A stretch of 40,846 nt of DNA from Desulfovibrio cuneatus DSM 11391. Lineage in GTDB: Bacteria > Desulfobacterota > Desulfovibrionia > Desulfovibrionales > Desulfovibrionaceae. This document shows positions 18,262 through 23,937 of this stretch, in pieces. The notes beneath the pieces were generated by a model, which worked only from the letters and a program-made list of their open reading frames with translations, searched no databases and was not told the DNA's origin. The stretch is taken from NCBI RefSeq assembly GCF_000430005.1, contig NZ_AUCY01000029.1:1-40846 (forward strand), in the 5' to 3' direction. Position numbers and translations under genes: made by a program. Each line of letters starts with the position of its first letter. The first letter of the stretch is position 1.

Positions 18262-18942
18262 ATGAGTATCAATGCTATCGGTCAAACAAGAGGTATGGAC
18301 ACTTTTTTTAATGAAAAAGTCCGTAAAACCAGTCCACAACCTTCTCAGTCCTTTGGGGTGGCATGCACAGTCAATATCTCCAGTGAGGCAATAGAAAAAT
18401 ACTTTGCCATGAAAAACGCCAACCAGGCGGGAGAAAATGGTTCCACTACCTCTGGAGATGTCGCTGCCAAAATTTCTGATTGGTATGATGACTTTCGTAA
18501 AAATATGGGGATGGTAGATGAACCGGATTACTCGGCGTGGCCTCCGGAAAATCAAGCGAGACGTCAGCAGTTGTTAAAAGAGCGTGATGTGTTATGGCAG
18601 GCGGCCTCAAACACCTCTTTCACTGACGCGAATAGAAAACTAAATCGCAACACGTATGAGCTTATGACTCTTGATGCTATAGGGGGGCAGCAGGTTCTCT
18701 CAGACAGTGATATGGGCAAGGCACGTGATGCGCTTTATAGTGCTATGGATAGATGGGAACATGACTTACCCGGCACGACTGCATGGTTGGCTGGAGAGGG
18801 CTCTTTTAATAACGGGCAACCACCCGCATCAGGAGAATCACTCGTATCACTGGCCCAAAAGAATTTTGCTCCTAGCGAAGAAGAGGAAGTCCGTTTAAAG
18901 AGGGAACGATTATTGCCCGGGTTTCTTAAAGAGGGTCAGTAA
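18262..18942 (+). CDS. unknown 226-residue protein, sigma54-controlled
   Basis: I do not recognise this protein. It has 226 residues, is hydrophilic and acidic to neutral, with no signal peptide or membrane segment and one cysteine (in GVACTVNISSEA). The N-terminal 35 residues are Ser/Thr/Gln-rich and look disordered. A short VNISSEAIEKYFAMKNA helix follows, then a mainly helical region (about 75-220). The start is secure: AAGGAGGT lies five bases before the ATG. A near-consensus sigma54 promoter precedes it and a bidirectional terminator follows. The SINAIG... start and the VxISxEA string resemble short N-terminal tags seen in some flagellum-associated proteins, but that is weak. It is AT-richer than the genes outside the island. 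Confidence 0.8.
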   Translation: MSINAIGQTRGMDTFFNEKVRKTSPQPSQSFGVACTVNISSEAIEKYFAMKNANQAGENGSTTSGDVAAKISDWYDDFRKNMGMVDEPDYSAWPPENQARRQQLLKERDVLWQAASNTSFTDANRKLNRNTYELMTLDAIGGQQVLSDSDMGKARDALYSAMDRWEHDLPGTTAWLAGEGSFNNGQPPASGESLVSLAQKNFAPSEEEEVRLKRERLLPGFLKEGQ

Positions 18943-18946
18943 CTGC

Positions 18947-18974
18947 AAAGCCCTTCTCTTGCGAGAGGGGCTTT
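18947..18974. terminator. bidirectional terminator between convergent genes
   Basis: The stem AAAGCCCTTCTC/GAGAGGGGCTTT (one G-U pair) has loop TTGC and sits between the stop of the unknown gene (18942) and the stop of the C39 peptidase gene (18973, which it overlaps). T residues follow on the plus strand. Confidence 0.75.
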
Positions 18975-19677
18975 AATTAATTGTTTCAACAGGAAAAATA
19001 ATCCTAAAAAATTTATCTGGTATATTCTGGAACTGTCTATGCTGGTTCCTCAACATTTCCACTTGTGGGTCTTTCCATTCAGGAGATAATTCTTGGTTCA
19101 GAGCAAGCAGATGGTCAGTAGGCAATCCAAAACCCGCCTTCCCAAGGACAAGGGCTAGCCCGCCTTTCCATTGAGAAATAAAATCATCATGCCTGATCCA
19201 TATATTTCCACGCGAGGGGTCTGCCAGATAGACTCGCCCTTGTCCGATTCCCTTCACAATAACAAAATGGTTAATTTCTTTTCCTTCCAAAAGCACGATT
19301 ACCGGCCCTTTTAATTTTTCAAGCATTTCCGGCGACAGTTCTACTCCCGCTGCAACATATCCCATGCTTTGCGCCTGTATTTTGAGGTCTTGCATTGAGA
19401 AGCCGCGAGCTAGCCTTGCCTTTAGTTCGTCAGGGGGGATTCTGTTGAACATATCATCTAAAATAAATGGTTCCGGTGCGGGGTCATGAAAATAATATTC
19501 TATTAAAGTGGATAATGCGCCAGCACCACAAGAGTAATCGTATATCTGGCGATTAACATTCTGCCATTTTATTTTTTGCCATGATGACACTTCTTTCTTA
19601 TTTTTTTCTAATGGAGTACATCCATAATTATATAGTGTACAAATGGTTAGTAGCATCAATATAATATTCTTACTCAT
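18973..19677 (-). CDS. periplasmic C39-family peptidase, possible lipoprotein
   Basis: This 234-residue protein is a stand-alone C39 cysteine peptidase, the family that removes double-glycine leaders. The catalytic set is visible: Gln44 and Cys50 in RQIYDYSCGAGAL, His137 in EINHFVIVKG and Asp153 in VYLADPSRG. The first 19 residues form a signal peptide ending in YNYGC, where Cys20 could be lipidated, although Asn at -3 makes the lipobox weak. There is no transporter or ATPase domain, unlike bacteriocin ABC exporters. It most resembles FapD-type peptidases of functional-amyloid loci. It follows the beta-barrel gene by 3 bp. Its likely substrate is the precursor encoded at 21021-21395, which carries a matching cleavage motif; this is inference. 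Confidence 0.85.
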   Translation of the reverse strand: MSKNIILMLLTICTLYNYGCTPLEKNKKEVSSWQKIKWQNVNRQIYDYSCGAGALSTLIEYYFHDPAPEPFILDDMFNRIPPDELKARLARGFSMQDLKIQAQSMGYVAAGVELSPEMLEKLKGPVIVLLEGKEINHFVIVKGIGQGRVYLADPSRGNIWIRHDDFISQWKGGLALVLGKAGFGLPTDHLLALNQELSPEWKDPQVEMLRNQHRQFQNIPDKFFRIIFPVETIN

Positions 19678-19680
19678 GAT

Positions 19681-20934
19681 TTAAAACGATCTTGCTAAAG
19701 ATAGCCCAAGAACAAAATCAGACGCATCATCATTTAATCCAAAGTTTACAAATGGGTTTATTATCAAATGACTTAACGTTCGATAGCTCAATCCAAGTCC
19801 GATGCTTACAGGGTCTAAAGAAGTTCCATACTGTTCTACACCGGCTTTTTTTAGCTCAAAAACATGTTCTCCTGATAATCTCGCGCTCAGGCTAGCTTGG
19901 TCATTAACCGCAAAGCCTACACCGCCGTAATAGCCGATTCTGTCCCCACGTTTATAGTCTGTGCCCTCATGTGTTGCTGAAAACTCATATTGATAGCTAG
20001 TTCCATAAAAAAAAGTAAGTGGGTCAGTTGTTGTGACAAAGTGTGCACCTGGGCGGATGGCCCAGTTCCCCCTACCCGATGCGATAGCGGCATCAAGTTG
20101 GTTACTCGTATAGGGAGCCTCGCCTGTTGGTGCAATGGCATCAAGAGAAAACGTTACCGAAGGGGTTTGTATTCCTTCCCCGATTGCGAGAAAACGAACT
20201 CCAGCGGAAAGGTCGCCTATGCCGCCTCCGTCCTTTTTGCTTTGATATATCCCCTCTGTTCTATCAAAAGTTGCGTACTGGAAAGGCACGTTTAACCATG
20301 CTTCAAGGCGTTCTGTTATACCAACCGTTGTTGCGATGTCGGCAGTAAATCTATTTCGTGTTTCGTTTGCAACAACACCAAACATTGTTGAAATCACGGG
20401 GTTGTCGTAGCGGCTTCTATCGTATGAAAGTGTCAGAGCAAGTTCAACTTCGCCCGGCTTTCTGATTACAGTTGAACCTCTCAAATATTCTTTAGGAGGT
20501 GACTCAGAGTCTTCTCCGACAGTTTTATTTGTTGTCTTTGCGGCCACATTTTTGGGTGAATTTAACTGTGCAATAATTTTATTTTCATTCATCGTAGATG
20601 AAATGGATGATATAGTATCTTTTCTAGAACTTATTATACCAAATTTTTCAGAATTAATAACCGCCTCTTGACCATTATAAAGCAGCATCCCAATAACAGT
20701 CTCACCACTATCAAGGATGAGTTTCACATGTGATGATGTTTCAATTGATTTAATATCGCTTGTATTTATTGTCCTTTTTTCTCCATGCGCGTATATTTCT
20801 ACAGCATACTGTGAATATCGAAAAAAAATGCCATTCAATTTTTCGCCATTTACTAAAGATACTGTATCCGCAACGGCAGTTGATGATATAAAAAAAGACA
20901 TGCAACTAATCGCTAGTATAGAGCAAATTTTCAT
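19681..20934 (-). CDS. outer-membrane beta-barrel with N-terminal repeat domains
   Basis: The protein has 417 residues. The Sec signal peptide ends at AVA-D (residue 22). Residues about 24-66 and 68-112 are two related small beta units (SLVNGEKLNGIFF... and KLILDSGETVIGMLL...), like the periplasmic repeats in DUF481-type proteins. A low-complexity linker follows. Residues about 150-417 alternate polar and apolar positions in strands (for example SVTFSLDAIAPTGEAPY and LDPVSIGLGLSYR) and end in Phe, the outer-membrane insertion signal. The barrel resembles the MetA-pathway/FapF-like porin group. The ATG at 20934 is chosen because GGGAAG precedes it at good spacing; an in-frame TTG lies at 20961. 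Probably the exit or anchoring pore for the precursor upstream. Confidence 0.82.
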   Translation of the reverse strand: MKICSILAISCMSFFISSTAVADTVSLVNGEKLNGIFFRYSQYAVEIYAHGEKRTINTSDIKSIETSSHVKLILDSGETVIGMLLYNGQEAVINSEKFGIISSRKDTISSISSTMNENKIIAQLNSPKNVAAKTTNKTVGEDSESPPKEYLRGSTVIRKPGEVELALTLSYDRSRYDNPVISTMFGVVANETRNRFTADIATTVGITERLEAWLNVPFQYATFDRTEGIYQSKKDGGGIGDLSAGVRFLAIGEGIQTPSVTFSLDAIAPTGEAPYTSNQLDAAIASGRGNWAIRPGAHFVTTTDPLTFFYGTSYQYEFSATHEGTDYKRGDRIGYYGGVGFAVNDQASLSARLSGEHVFELKKAGVEQYGTSLDPVSIGLGLSYRTLSHLIINPFVNFGLNDDASDFVLGLSLARSF

Positions 20935-20970
20935 ATGTACATCTTCCCGACATTTTATCAATATAAAAGG

Positions 20971-20999
20971 AGGAAAGCTGCCTATATGGCAGCTTTCCT
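20971..20999 (-). terminator. intra-operon hairpin, probable attenuator
   Basis: A perfect 12-bp stem AGGAAAGCTGCC/GGCAGCTTTCCT (20971-20982 and 20988-20999) with a 5-base loop lies between the precursor gene and the barrel gene. On the minus strand it is followed by TTTTATAT. It could partly end transcription or protect the upstream message, giving more precursor than export protein. Confidence 0.7.
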
Positions 21000-21020
21000 T
21001 GTTGACAAGTCTATAACACG

Positions 21021-21395
21021 TTAGCGGCGAGTAGCCCAGGCCGAGACAGGGCTGTTACTCTGATTCCAAATAACCATAGGATAGCCGTGAACCCTACTAT
21101 CGCTGACATACCATGTTCCAAAATAGTTGGTATAGAGAGAACGCGGCCCGCTGGATAATCTCCAATTGCTAAATGTTTTGCTGCGAGCGTCAGTCCTAAA
21201 ATTGGCACCATAGCTAAATATCACGGAATACTCCGTGATATTTGCCCCTTGGGCTGCATCCAAGGTGGCATCATCAGCCATAGCTACCGCCTGGCTTTGC
21301 CCAAGGTCGGCCAAGATAGCGGGTTCTTCCGCACACGCGGCTCCGGCAAATGCAAGTGCGCCCAAGCAGCAAAAAGTCATTAAGAATTTCTTCAT
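21021..21395 (-). CDS. secreted precursor with Sec signal plus double-glycine-like leader
   Basis: This 124-residue protein starts with a clear Sec signal peptide (MKKFLMTFCCLGALAFAGAA, cleavage after ACA, residue 22). It then has a second leader: DDATLDAAQGA (41-51) places Leu at -7, Ala at -4, Gly at -2 and Ala at -1, the pattern C39 peptidases cut in bacteriocin leaders. The predicted mature product, residues 52-124, has 14 aromatic residues in 73, many Asn and Ser, and no Cys. That fits a beta-rich or aggregating extracellular peptide better than a classic disulfide bacteriocin. GAGG six bases before the ATG sets the start; an in-frame ATG four codons earlier overlaps that ribosome binding site. 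It is first in the operon with the barrel and C39 peptidase. Confidence 0.78.
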   Translation of the reverse strand: MKKFLMTFCCLGALAFAGAACAEEPAILADLGQSQAVAMADDATLDAAQGANITEYSVIFSYGANFRTDARSKTFSNWRLSSGPRSLYTNYFGTWYVSDSRVHGYPMVIWNQSNSPVSAWATRR

Positions 21396-21852: not shown

Positions 21853-23937
21853 TTATTTACGCAGGCTGGTAATAATAGACTCCAGGTGCTTTGCCAGCCC
21901 CAGCAGGGCTGCCACTGCCTCGCGGGAGCGCAAGGCTGCGCTGCTCACGCTATCTGCCGCCTGCCGCACTGCACCAGTGCTGTTGTTCACCTCTTCTGCC
22001 GTGGCAGACTGCTCTTCTGTGGCTGCGGCAATGGTGCGCACCTGGTCGGCAGTTTTGTCCACCATGCCTTCAATGCGGTCAAGGGCTGCCCCGGCCTGGC
22101 CTGCCAGTTCGGCCGAATGGGTGACAATGCCGGAAGAATTCTGCATGGCCCGCAGGCTTTCATCCGTGCCCCGCTGAATGCTGGTAATGGCGCTGCCCAC
22201 CTGCTGGGTGGCCTGCATGGTTTTTTCCGCCAGTTTGCGCACTTCATCGGCTACCACGGCAAACCCGCGCCCGGCTTCCCCGGCACGGGCCGCTTCAATG
22301 GCGGCGTTCAGGGCCAGCAGGTTGGTCTGGTCGGCAATGTCGTTAATTACGCCCATAATTTCGCCAATGTCTTTGGCCTGTGTGCCCAGCGCTTCCAGGC
22401 TTTTGCCCATAACAATACTTTCTTTTTCAACCTGGGCAATGCTGGCTACCATGTCGTGCACCAATTTTTTCCCATCAACACTCTGTGCACGGGCAGCGTC
22501 GGCAAGGCCGGAAGTGCTGCTGATGTTATCAGCCATTTCCGTAAGCACCACAGTCATTTGGGAAATGGCTGTGGCAATTTCCCCTACCCGGTGCTGCTGG
22601 GTTGCCACGCTATCAGCGGTGGCGGTTACCTCGCTGGAAAGTTGCCCTGCTGCCCCGGTAATTTGCTGCACCACAGCGCTAAGCTGCTCCGCCGTTTCCA
22701 AAATACCGTCACGCCGGGCCTGTTCCCCTGCAATTTTGGCTTCTTCCGCTGCGGCAGCGGAATGCCGGGCCTGTTCCAGGGCATCTTCTGCTTCACGCAC
22801 TTTGCCCTTGCCTTCTGCAATAAGGGCGGCCAGCGTGGTGACCATGCCCTGCAAACTGCGGTGCAGCAGCCCAAGTTCCGCCGTAAAGCCCTTACCTTCT
22901 GCCGGAATGGCATCCAGGTTACCTTCTGCCACAGACTGAGCAGCCGAAGCCAACACTTCCAACGGGCCCACAATGCTTTTGGAAAGCACATAGGCAACCC
23001 CGGCCATAACCGCCAAAATACCAAGGCCCACAATGAAAATACTCATGGTCAGGGCCATGGCGTCGGCAAAAATTTCGTCCTTGTCCTGTAGCAAAATAAG
23101 AGTCCAGTTATCACTGGTGGTGTGTACCCCGGCAAGCCACGTTGTGTTACTCAGCACGGTTTCTGAAACACCCTGCCTTTGCGCACGCAAGGCACCAAGC
23201 ACCTTGCCGGCCTCGGCGGGCAAGTCGGTAAGGGCCTTGCCCAGCCAGGTTTTATCTTCAGCCACCAGCACCTGCCCGGTGTGGTCAAGCAGCAGAATAC
23301 TCCCTGTTTTGCCAATGCGAATGCGCCCCAGTTCCTTGGTTAGGCTTTCCAAGCTAATATCAATGCCAAGCACGCCCTGCACACCGCTATTGCCCGTTAC
23401 AGGAACTGCAACGGTTGAAACAACTGTGCCTGTATCAGAAATGTAGGCTTCCGTCACCACGGCCTTGCCTGCGCGCTGCGCTTCAGCAAACCAGGGGCGG
23501 CTTGCAGGGTCGTAGCCTGCACTTAAGGGGTCGTCCGGGGCTTGCACAAAGCCACCCTGGCTGTCCCCCAGGTACACAAGCAAGTACCATGGGTTGTTGG
23601 CCTGCCAAGAGGAAAACAACTGAAACAGCTCACGTTCCTTAGGGGGAAGCTGCAACCCCACCGGAGTAACGTCTACGCCCAGGTTTTTATATACCGTCAT
23701 ATTGCCCAGGTTTTCACGCACCTGGGGCATAGATGCCATAAAGCGAATATCGCTCATGGTTCTGGCGAAAAAACTGTCTACAAATGCACTTACCCTGTCC
23801 AGTTGGGCCTGGCTTGTTACAGCAAAATTTTCTGTTAGTGCAGTTTGCAACTTTTGCGATACCGTAAGCGTTACCCCGGCCAGGGTAACCACCACAGCCG
23901 TAAGAATGGCAAGCATCATTTTGATACGAATACTCAT
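21853..23937 (-). CDS. methyl-accepting chemotaxis receptor with dCache domain
   Basis: This 694-residue transmembrane chemoreceptor signals to CheA/CheW. Order: TM1 (about 7-28), periplasmic double-Cache domain (about 35-285), TM2 (about 297-320), HAMP (about 320-375), then the coiled-coil signalling domain with the highly conserved tip [20 protein letters not shown]. The dCache part carries YDPASRPWF (142-150), Tyr165 and Asp193 in GVLGIDIS. This is close to the amino-acid-binding motif described for dCache_1 receptors, with Phe150 where Tyr is usual, so an amino-acid or related amine ligand is likely. AGGTGG precedes the ATG. A sigma28-like promoter is visible upstream and a terminator downstream. 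No che genes are in the window. The C-terminus lacks an obvious CheR-tethering pentapeptide. Confidence 0.93.

What the first reader, a model, noticed from the sequence alone, without database searches (positions are those of the whole stretch)
18973..21395. Three-gene export locus: dual-leader precursor, outer-membrane barrel and stand-alone C39 peptidase
The sequence shows three adjacent minus-strand genes. The first product has a Sec signal peptide and, after it, a second leader with Leu -7, Ala -4, Gly -2, Ala -1. The second is a C-terminal-Phe beta-barrel with two small repeat domains. The third is a C39 peptidase with signal peptide and intact Gln44/Cys50/His137/Asp153 but no ABC domains. 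In known bacteriocin systems C39 domains sit on ABC transporters and cut in the cytoplasm; in Fap amyloid loci a FapD C39 protein accompanies an outer-membrane pore. Inference: a minimal Fap-like pathway in which Sec exports the precursor, C39 trims it in the periplasm and the barrel releases or anchors it. The aromatic, Asn/Ser-rich 73-residue product fits a fibre or adhesive. I know of no described system with exactly this set.
Basis: partly seen in the sequence, partly recalled or inferred. Interest (0 to 1): 0.85.

Follow-up and report, generated by a model that had tools for sequence, protein, structure and literature searches.

The report
Two-leader peptide export gene trio
Three neighbouring bacterial genes look like a small secretion device in which a peptide crosses the inner membrane, is trimmed a second time between the membranes and leaves through an outer-membrane pore; the same design recurs with different cargo proteins and suggests where a poorly understood enzyme of bacterial amyloid fibres may cut.

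Summary
The three genes are real: a precursor with two leaders (Sec signal peptide, then a C39-type leader ending Gly-Ala), an outer-membrane barrel with FapF's fold, and a stand-alone FapD-like C39 peptidase. In 121 related loci, signal-peptide ORFs near the C39 gene carry the second-leader motif about three times as often as others. The window's C39 falls in a supported seven-locus clade (the window, one genome of its family, two Pseudomonas, Herbaspirillum, Paucimonas, Desulfobacula); all seven have the trio and share the leader. The cargo differs: UmoA-like in six, an unrelated 73-residue cationic peptide here. Leader and exporter are conserved, cargo is swapped. The fibre guess is not supported. 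The set is not new in kind: the haemocin (bacteriocin) locus has the same three parts, with LSQKEMSEVKGG after a signal peptide, and the published Neisseria nap island is similar. Apparently unreported in the papers I could search: FapE, beside FapD, has a leader of the same spacing (e.g. DQELAQLRGK) in 26 of 29 Pseudomonadaceae loci, a concrete testable cut site for FapD, whose substrate was reported as undetermined. Best reading: a haemocin/Fap-type two-leader export locus, probably acquired horizontally, cargo function unknown.

The parts
21330..21395 (-). precursor, Sec signal peptide (residues 1-22)
   Evidence: judged by eye and by a simple hydrophobicity rule
21243..21329 (-). precursor, second (C39-type) leader EEPAILADLGQSQAVAMADDATLDAAQGA, predicted cut after Ala51
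   Evidence: 16.1 bits, 0 of 10,000 shuffles as high; alignment with 9 relatives
21021..21242 (-). precursor, mature cargo of 73 aa plus stop; 8 Lys/Arg, 3 Asp/Glu, 14 aromatic, no Cys
   Evidence: no Pfam or PHROG family, no significant NCBIfam family; unlike the UmoA-like cargo
20971..20999 (-). terminator-like hairpin between precursor and barrel genes, may limit read-through into the exporter genes
   Evidence: region folds at -28.5 kcal/mol, z -4.5; same gap in L090 z -5.9, L093 z -3.8, L088 z -1.8, L094 z -1.2
19681..20934 (-). outer-membrane barrel, FapF-like; about residues 23-113 two small beta repeats, 148-417 barrel
   Evidence: Pfam Phenol_MetA_deg 1.7e-11; FapF in PDB 9.3e-35; model against 5o65 Z 28.9, rmsd 1.8 over 245 residues
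18973..19677 (-). stand-alone C39 peptidase, FapD-like, with signal peptide
   Evidence: Pfam 2e-18, NCBIfam FapD 2.7e-25; catalytic residues invariant
18947..18974 (.). hairpin between the convergent C39 and candidate companion genes
   Evidence: z -4.2
18262..18942 (+). candidate companion gene without signal peptide; at best a weak relative of a gene found beside five of the other six clade trios
   Evidence: 12.3 bits in the most sensitive mode, 0 of 1,000 shuffles as high (max 7.7), but not reported in the ordinary scan; 10-15% identity

Best explanation
A probably horizontally acquired two-leader export locus of the FapD/FapF kind, closest in plan to the haemocin bacteriocin locus. Sec moves the precursor into the periplasm and the first leader is removed (inferred from the signal peptide). 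The remaining leader (PAILxxL...DDAxLxxxxGA) is recognised by the exported C39 peptidase, which cuts after about Ala51 (inferred). The 73-residue cationic, aromatic peptide leaves through the FapF-type barrel (inferred from fold and from what is known of FapF). The hairpin after the precursor gene may make much cargo and little exporter (inferred). Cargo function is not shown; I favour a released, effector- or bacteriocin-like peptide (about 0.4) over a surface or regulatory protein like UmoA (0.25) or a fibre (0.15). Shown: gene set, leader conservation, fold, clade, cargo swap. Not shown: the cut, secretion, function.
For: Leader conserved beyond chance. All 7 clade loci have precursor, barrel and C39. 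Signal-peptide ORFs within 2.5 kb on the C39 strand carry the motif in 35 of 103 against 13 of 109 others (p 1e-4), and in a second set in 31 of 113 against 14 of 187 (p 4e-6), the others being near the shuffle expectation. FapF fold. Haemocin: the same three parts, SP + LSQKEMSEVKGG. FapE beside FapD has a leader of the same spacing in 26 of 29 loci. [quoted passage not shown] Low GC (barrel 40.7%, C39 40.0%, precursor 50.1%, window 55.8%) and presence in 2 of 149 family genomes, the own one included, fit acquisition.
Against: No cut was observed. The window leader fits less well (16-17 bits) than eight of the nine trained rows (36-55; the ninth, L092, was cut short at 12.0), and has Ala at -4 and -1. 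The clade's leader profile does not find the haemocin leader (E 0.95), so their kinship rests on spacing and position. 16 of 41 and 54 of 80 loci show no motif-bearing near ORF under the fixed rule, although some have leaders that the rule misses. No AAA ATPase as annotated in the haemocin locus is next to the window trio. The window C39 is on a long branch (0.95).
Confidence: 0.7

Rival explanations
1. A minimal Fap-like fibre or adhesin system: the trimmed 73-residue product polymerises on the surface and stays attached to the barrel.
For: Peptidase and barrel are FapD- and FapF-like; cargo has 14 of 73 aromatic and 18 of 73 Asn+Ser residues.
Against: No FapC relative in this genome with one FapC-like query, while its home genome G149 gave it; no repeat visible in the cargo; sister cargo is UmoA-like.
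Confidence: 0.12
2. The C39 acts mainly on the barrel (the linker between beta repeats and barrel) to gate it, and the precursor's second leader is a binding or chaperone segment that is not cut.
For: PMC5557850 (section 8) raises cleavage of FapF as a possibility; residues 122-153 of the model have pLDDT under 50.
Against: The conserved element with C39-leader spacing lies in the cargo, also in haemocin and FapE. I did not look for a conserved site in the barrel linker; the linker differs in length between relatives.
Confidence: 0.12
3. A signalling or motility-related locus: the exported protein acts like UmoA on the envelope or on flagellar control, and the companion is a flagellum-related protein.
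For: UmoA-model matches of all six sister cargos (1.1e-6 to 9.8e-15); weak FspA match of one companion (E 0.085); the L094 trio lies between FlhA- and FliN-type genes.
Against: All UmoA matches (28-55 bits) are below the curated cut-off of 200; the window cargo has none; Proteus UmoA has no C39 or barrel within 8 kb and no such leader; I saw no flagellar genes beside the other sister trios, though not every neighbour was identified.
Confidence: 0.15

Closest known systems
Haemocin locus (HmcD, C39 peptidase, AAA ATPase, haemocin, immunity), Avibacterium paragallinarum plasmid p250
   Same: Barrel related to this family (HmcD 1.2e-9), stand-alone C39 with signal peptide, precursor with signal peptide plus double-glycine leader
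   Different: Adds an AAA ATPase and an immunity protein; HmcD (292 aa) is shorter and matches no NCBIfam model; different cargo; leader not found by the clade's leader profile (E 0.95)
Fap functional amyloid system of Pseudomonas (FapA-F)
   Same: FapD-like peptidase, FapF fold, and a FapE with signal peptide plus leader beside FapD
   Different: No FapC relative found in the genome; beta repeats instead of FapF's coiled coil; matches to FapD and FapF models far under their cut-offs
Neisseria nap island (NapP C39, NapF FapF homologue, NapA-C GG peptides)
   Same: Small GG-leader peptides with a C39 and a FapF-like pore on an island with low GC (PMC11798529, section 5 read)
   Different: Three peptides, a putative holin, immunity-like and regulator genes; whether the peptides have Sec signal peptides was not checked here
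Fil system (FilA, FilB C39, FilC barrel)
   Same: FilB and FilC models match the peptidase (5.9e-20) and barrel (2.4e-7); one FilA-like protein near a C39 (L013, 2.6e-5) and others like it by eye have SP + leader ending Gly-Gln
   Different: Larger cargo and extra genes; matches far below the curated cut-offs

Membership tests
Fap system | exported stand-alone C39 peptidase (FapD) | tested here: met
   but 89 bits against NCBIfam's FapD cut-off of 330, which true FapD proteins passed (345-404 bits in 5 of 5)
Fap system | FapF-type barrel fold | tested here: met
   NCBIfam FapF cut-off not reached (58.4 of 700)
[quoted passage not shown]
   model shows two beta repeats at 23-113 (pLDDT about 64-79) and only a short helix 117-125
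Fap system | FapC/FapB amyloid subunits | tested here: not met
   one FapC-like query, 0 in own genome and G093; found in G149, where the query comes from
Fap system | amyloid fibres | not testable with these tools
   needs experiment
Haemocin-type export locus | precursor with Sec signal peptide followed by C39-type leader | tested here: met
Haemocin-type export locus | stand-alone exported C39 plus FapF-like barrel adjacent | tested here: met
Haemocin-type export locus | neighbouring AAA ATPase | tested here: not met
   the nearest genes on the two sides are the candidate companion (no Pfam match) and a chemotaxis receptor
Haemocin-type export locus | immunity protein | tested here: inconclusive
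   the candidate companion could serve; no family match
Haemocin-type export locus | antibacterial activity | not testable with these tools
   needs experiment
UmoA family | UmoA domain in the cargo | tested here: not met
   no NCBIfam UmoA match; mature part scores like shuffles against the sister profile, 802 of 1,000 as high
Peptidase-containing ABC transporter | C39 fused to ABC membrane and ATPase domains | tested here: not met
   only Peptidase_C39 in the 234-aa protein

The most novel reading that the evidence does not exclude
There is one general two-leader secretion route in Gram-negative bacteria, Sec first and then an exported C39 peptidase with a FapF-type pore, addressed by a leader of about the form [DE]xxLxx[AVIL]xGx placed after the signal peptide. 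Fap (through FapE), haemocin, Fil and this trio are branches of it; cargo is interchangeable (bacteriocin, UmoA-like, amyloid accessory, unknown), and FapD cuts FapE at ELxxLRG-K/R.
Probability: 0.5. Interest if true: 0.78.

Novelty: new variant of a known kind. Interest (0 to 1): 0.62.

Why it matters
FapD activity is essential for secretion of Pseudomonas amyloid, yet its substrate was reported as unclear in 2017 and undetermined in 2018 and a 2025 review says only that it is thought to process the FapE N-terminus and the periplasmic region of FapF. A leader with the same spacing in FapE, haemocin and this family gives a residue-level prediction that one mutant can test. It also suggests that FapD/FapF-type pairs are a general small-protein exporter, which would help to find unannotated secreted peptides beside them.

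Tried and rejected
Single-sequence search of named genomes with the window C39 gave no relative; the profile search did. UmoA in the window cargo: rejected. UmoA model in 395 phylum genomes: none, but no control rang, so it shows nothing. I suspected a phospholipase-like motif in the L095/L075 cargo from reading it; no Pfam or NCBIfam match, so not claimed. Fold of the UmoA-like cargo: low confidence (pLDDT 60), no PDB match below E 0.5. Viral contigs: seven weak C39 relatives, not examined; no UmoA-like cargo. Phage records: two, both Acinetobacter and annotated as an NHLM ABC peptidase. Companion protein in 40 relatives: none, without a positive control. Leader profile in the own genome: the trained window row and one weak match on the signal-peptide part, E 0.22. 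In the ordinary ORF scan with the companion profile the window gene was not reported, while an ORF of L113 got E 0.055. In one search loose motif hits in L190 and L213 were not counted because the start was misassigned, and L211 gave no downstream ORF. L075 and L091 are the same contig and stand once in each set. The leader motif was fixed after I had looked at both sets, so neither set is fully independent of it. The six weakest hits were not fetched; L014 was left out of the tree for length. The two Pseudomonas genomes of L094 and L088 have one FapD-model match each, the trio's own.
Full report
WHAT IS THERE. The three minus-strand genes stand as described: precursor 21021-21395, barrel 19681-20934, C39 peptidase 18973-19677. 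86 nt separate precursor and barrel genes and 3 nt separate barrel and C39, so they look like one operon (inference). A terminator-like hairpin lies between precursor and barrel (20971-20999; the gap folds at -28.5 kcal/mol, z -4.5). The same gap is significant in L090 (z -5.9) and L093 (z -3.8) and weak in L088 (-1.8) and L094 (-1.2); in L005, where the order differs, I folded the gap between C39 and precursor and found nothing. This would give much cargo and little exporter (inference). The trio is GC-poor (C39 40.0%, barrel 40.7%, precursor 50.1%; window 55.8%; third-position GC 31-36% for barrel and C39 against 60-68% in five other window genes). The C39 occurs in 2 of 149 genomes of the family and 6 of 348 of the class at the thresholds used, the own genome included. 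It was probably acquired.

FAMILIES. The peptidase matches Pfam Peptidase_C39 (2e-18) and NCBIfam FapD (2.7e-25, 89 bits, cut-off 330). The barrel profile finds FapF in the PDB at 9.3e-35; the AlphaFold model (mean pLDDT 73) aligns with FapF 5o65 at Z 28.9, rmsd 1.8 over 245 residues, ahead of the COG4313 channel 4rl8 at Z 25.8. Its N-terminal part is two small beta repeats instead of FapF's coiled coil. The precursor has no Pfam or PHROG family and only an NCBIfam match at E 0.07 to residues 5-33.

THE SECOND LEADER IS WIDESPREAD. L075 and L091 are one contig. A barrel relative lies in the fetched stretch in 32 of 41 and 75 of 80. With one motif ([DENST]xx[LMVIF]xx[AVILT]xG, not Pro), fixed after both sets had been looked at, signal-peptide ORFs within 2.5 kb on the C39 strand have it in 35 of 103 against 13 of 109 others (shuffle expectation 12.4 and 9.5; Fisher p 1e-4); in the second set in 31 of 113 against 14 of 187 (expectation 13.3 and 14.1; p 4e-6). 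At least one such ORF exists in 25 of 41 and 26 of 80 loci, so many loci have none under this rule. Of 19 named loci that I asked for, 17 returned a gene just downstream of the C39; 16 of these show D/E-x-x-L-x4-G-K/R/G by eye, a form the rule often misses; two of them tested match the FapE model (L121 4e-14, L118 4.5e-10).

THE WINDOW'S OWN CLADE. In a tree of 120 C39 proteins the window row sits in a clade of seven (support 99/93): L005 (a genome of the same family), L090 Desulfobacula, L088 and L094 Pseudomonas, L093 Paucimonas, L096 Herbaspirillum; a wider clade of 13 rows has 97/91 (the window branch is long). All seven have precursor, barrel and C39. Six have the order precursor-barrel-C39; in five of these, the window included, the precursor lies 1,342-1,346 nt from the C39 (window 1,344), and in L096 the companion gene stands in between; L005 has barrel-C39-precursor. 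A leader profile trained on nine wider-clade precursors, window excluded, gives the window leader 16.1 bits; none of 10,000 shuffles reached it (max 12.8). Among 923 signal-peptide ORFs the window precursor is the best row that was neither trained nor identical to a trained row; next come the FapE-like protein of L011 (13.1) and the Herbaspirillum precursor (13.0), which I had not noticed before. With only five training rows the same test was weaker (36 of 5,000 shuffles as high).

CARGO IS SWAPPED. The precursors of all six sister loci match NCBIfam UmoA, all under the cut-off of 200 bits (L093 9.8e-15, L005 1.9e-11, L090 1.3e-10, L088 4.7e-8, L094 2.2e-7, L096 1.1e-6). The window's mature part does not resemble them (802 of 1,000 shuffles score as high). 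More distant L075/L091 and L095 have a related leader with yet another cargo, and L092 a short cationic tail. Proteus UmoA itself has neither leader nor C39/barrel within 8 kb. In the family of L094's genome the clade is rare: of 298 genomes drawn, 146 had a C39 match at 1e-25, but only L094's own genome scored 1e-103, the next 3e-35; L088's genome was not among the matches, so probably not drawn.

A POSSIBLE FOURTH GENE. A small protein without signal peptide accompanies five of the other six clade trios (L005 twice, L088 twice, L090, L094, L096 with a second match; not L093), and the profile reports none of the other loci at E 0.05 or better (L113 0.055). The window's convergent gene 18262-18942 was not reported in that ordinary scan; in the most sensitive mode it scores 12.3 bits, above all of 1,000 shuffles (max 7.7) but weak. 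The N-termini of the L005 copies recall FspA and FlgM (E 0.085 and 0.94), and the L094 trio lies between FlhA- and FliN-type genes; these are leads, not results.

WHAT IS KNOWN. FapD is an exported C39 peptidase whose Cys is needed for FapC secretion, with the target unclear and FapE suspected (PMC5557850, section 8 and passages; PMC6173800, passages). fapD/fapF homologues co-localise in five additional phyla (PMC6173800, section 6). The gonococcal nap island pairs GG peptides with a C39 and a FapF homologue (PMC11798529, section 5 and passages). On plasmid p250 the haemocin locus encodes a barrel of this family (HmcD 1.2e-9; no NCBIfam match), a stand-alone C39 with signal peptide (6e-26) and a haemocin precursor with a signal peptide followed by LSQKEMSEVKGG, which fits the LSxxELxxIxGG consensus quoted in a passage of PMC3897388. 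The clade's leader profile does not find it (E 0.95). An Acinetobacter plasmid has a C39, a two-leader precursor and the C-terminal part of a barrel at the record's edge. In listings and passages I found no held paper that states a two-leader precursor for haemocin or FapE (searches; most listed papers were not opened and subscription papers are not held).

LINK TO FAP. I examined the 29 best loci after L094's own. In 26 the gene directly downstream of the C39 has a signal peptide followed by [DE]xELxx[LM]RG[KR] or the close form with one change (e.g. DQELAQLRGK, EHELAEMRGR). Of five tested, five match the FapE model (four over its cut-off, L203 at 215 of 250 bits) and their C39s all pass the FapD cut-off. 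The spacing Leu -7, Leu/Met -4, Gly -2 equals that of double-glycine leaders, with Lys or Arg at -1. The published mass spectrometry missed about the first 70 residues of FapE, which agrees with processing but does not fix the site.

VERDICT. What is new and testable is the leader rule.

Noticed in passing
L181:3626-3928 and 1482-2919: The haemocin precursor has a signal peptide plus double-glycine leader, and HmcD is a FapF-like barrel: haemocin may be exported by Sec, an exported C39 and this pore rather than by an ABC transporter.
   Followed up: partly
L187-L215, gene downstream of the C39: FapE of Pseudomonadaceae has a conserved ELxx[LM]RG[KR] site after its signal peptide (26 of 29).
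   Followed up: partly
L011:5253-12175: A Fap-like locus in a genome of the window's order: FapB- and FapC-like repeat proteins (by eye), C39, FapE-like protein with second leader, barrel further downstream.
   Followed up: partly
L013:7736-13395, L068, L069, L052: Loci that look Fil-like in the phylum, with neighbouring proteins carrying SP + ...L..V.GQ leaders.
   Followed up: no
L075:1221-1835 and L095:4675-5340: Precursors with the same kind of leader but a cargo containing DxMDGxFxxHD, which resembles a phospholipase A2 motif by eye; no family match.
   Followed up: partly
window:7482-8498 (-) and 21856-23937 (-): A flagellar P-ring chaperone gene about 10 kb from the trio and a chemotaxis receptor gene directly upstream.
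   Followed up: no
L092:3780-4064: A 94-aa precursor with leader and an 18-residue strongly cationic tail beside a barrel/C39 pair.
   Followed up: no
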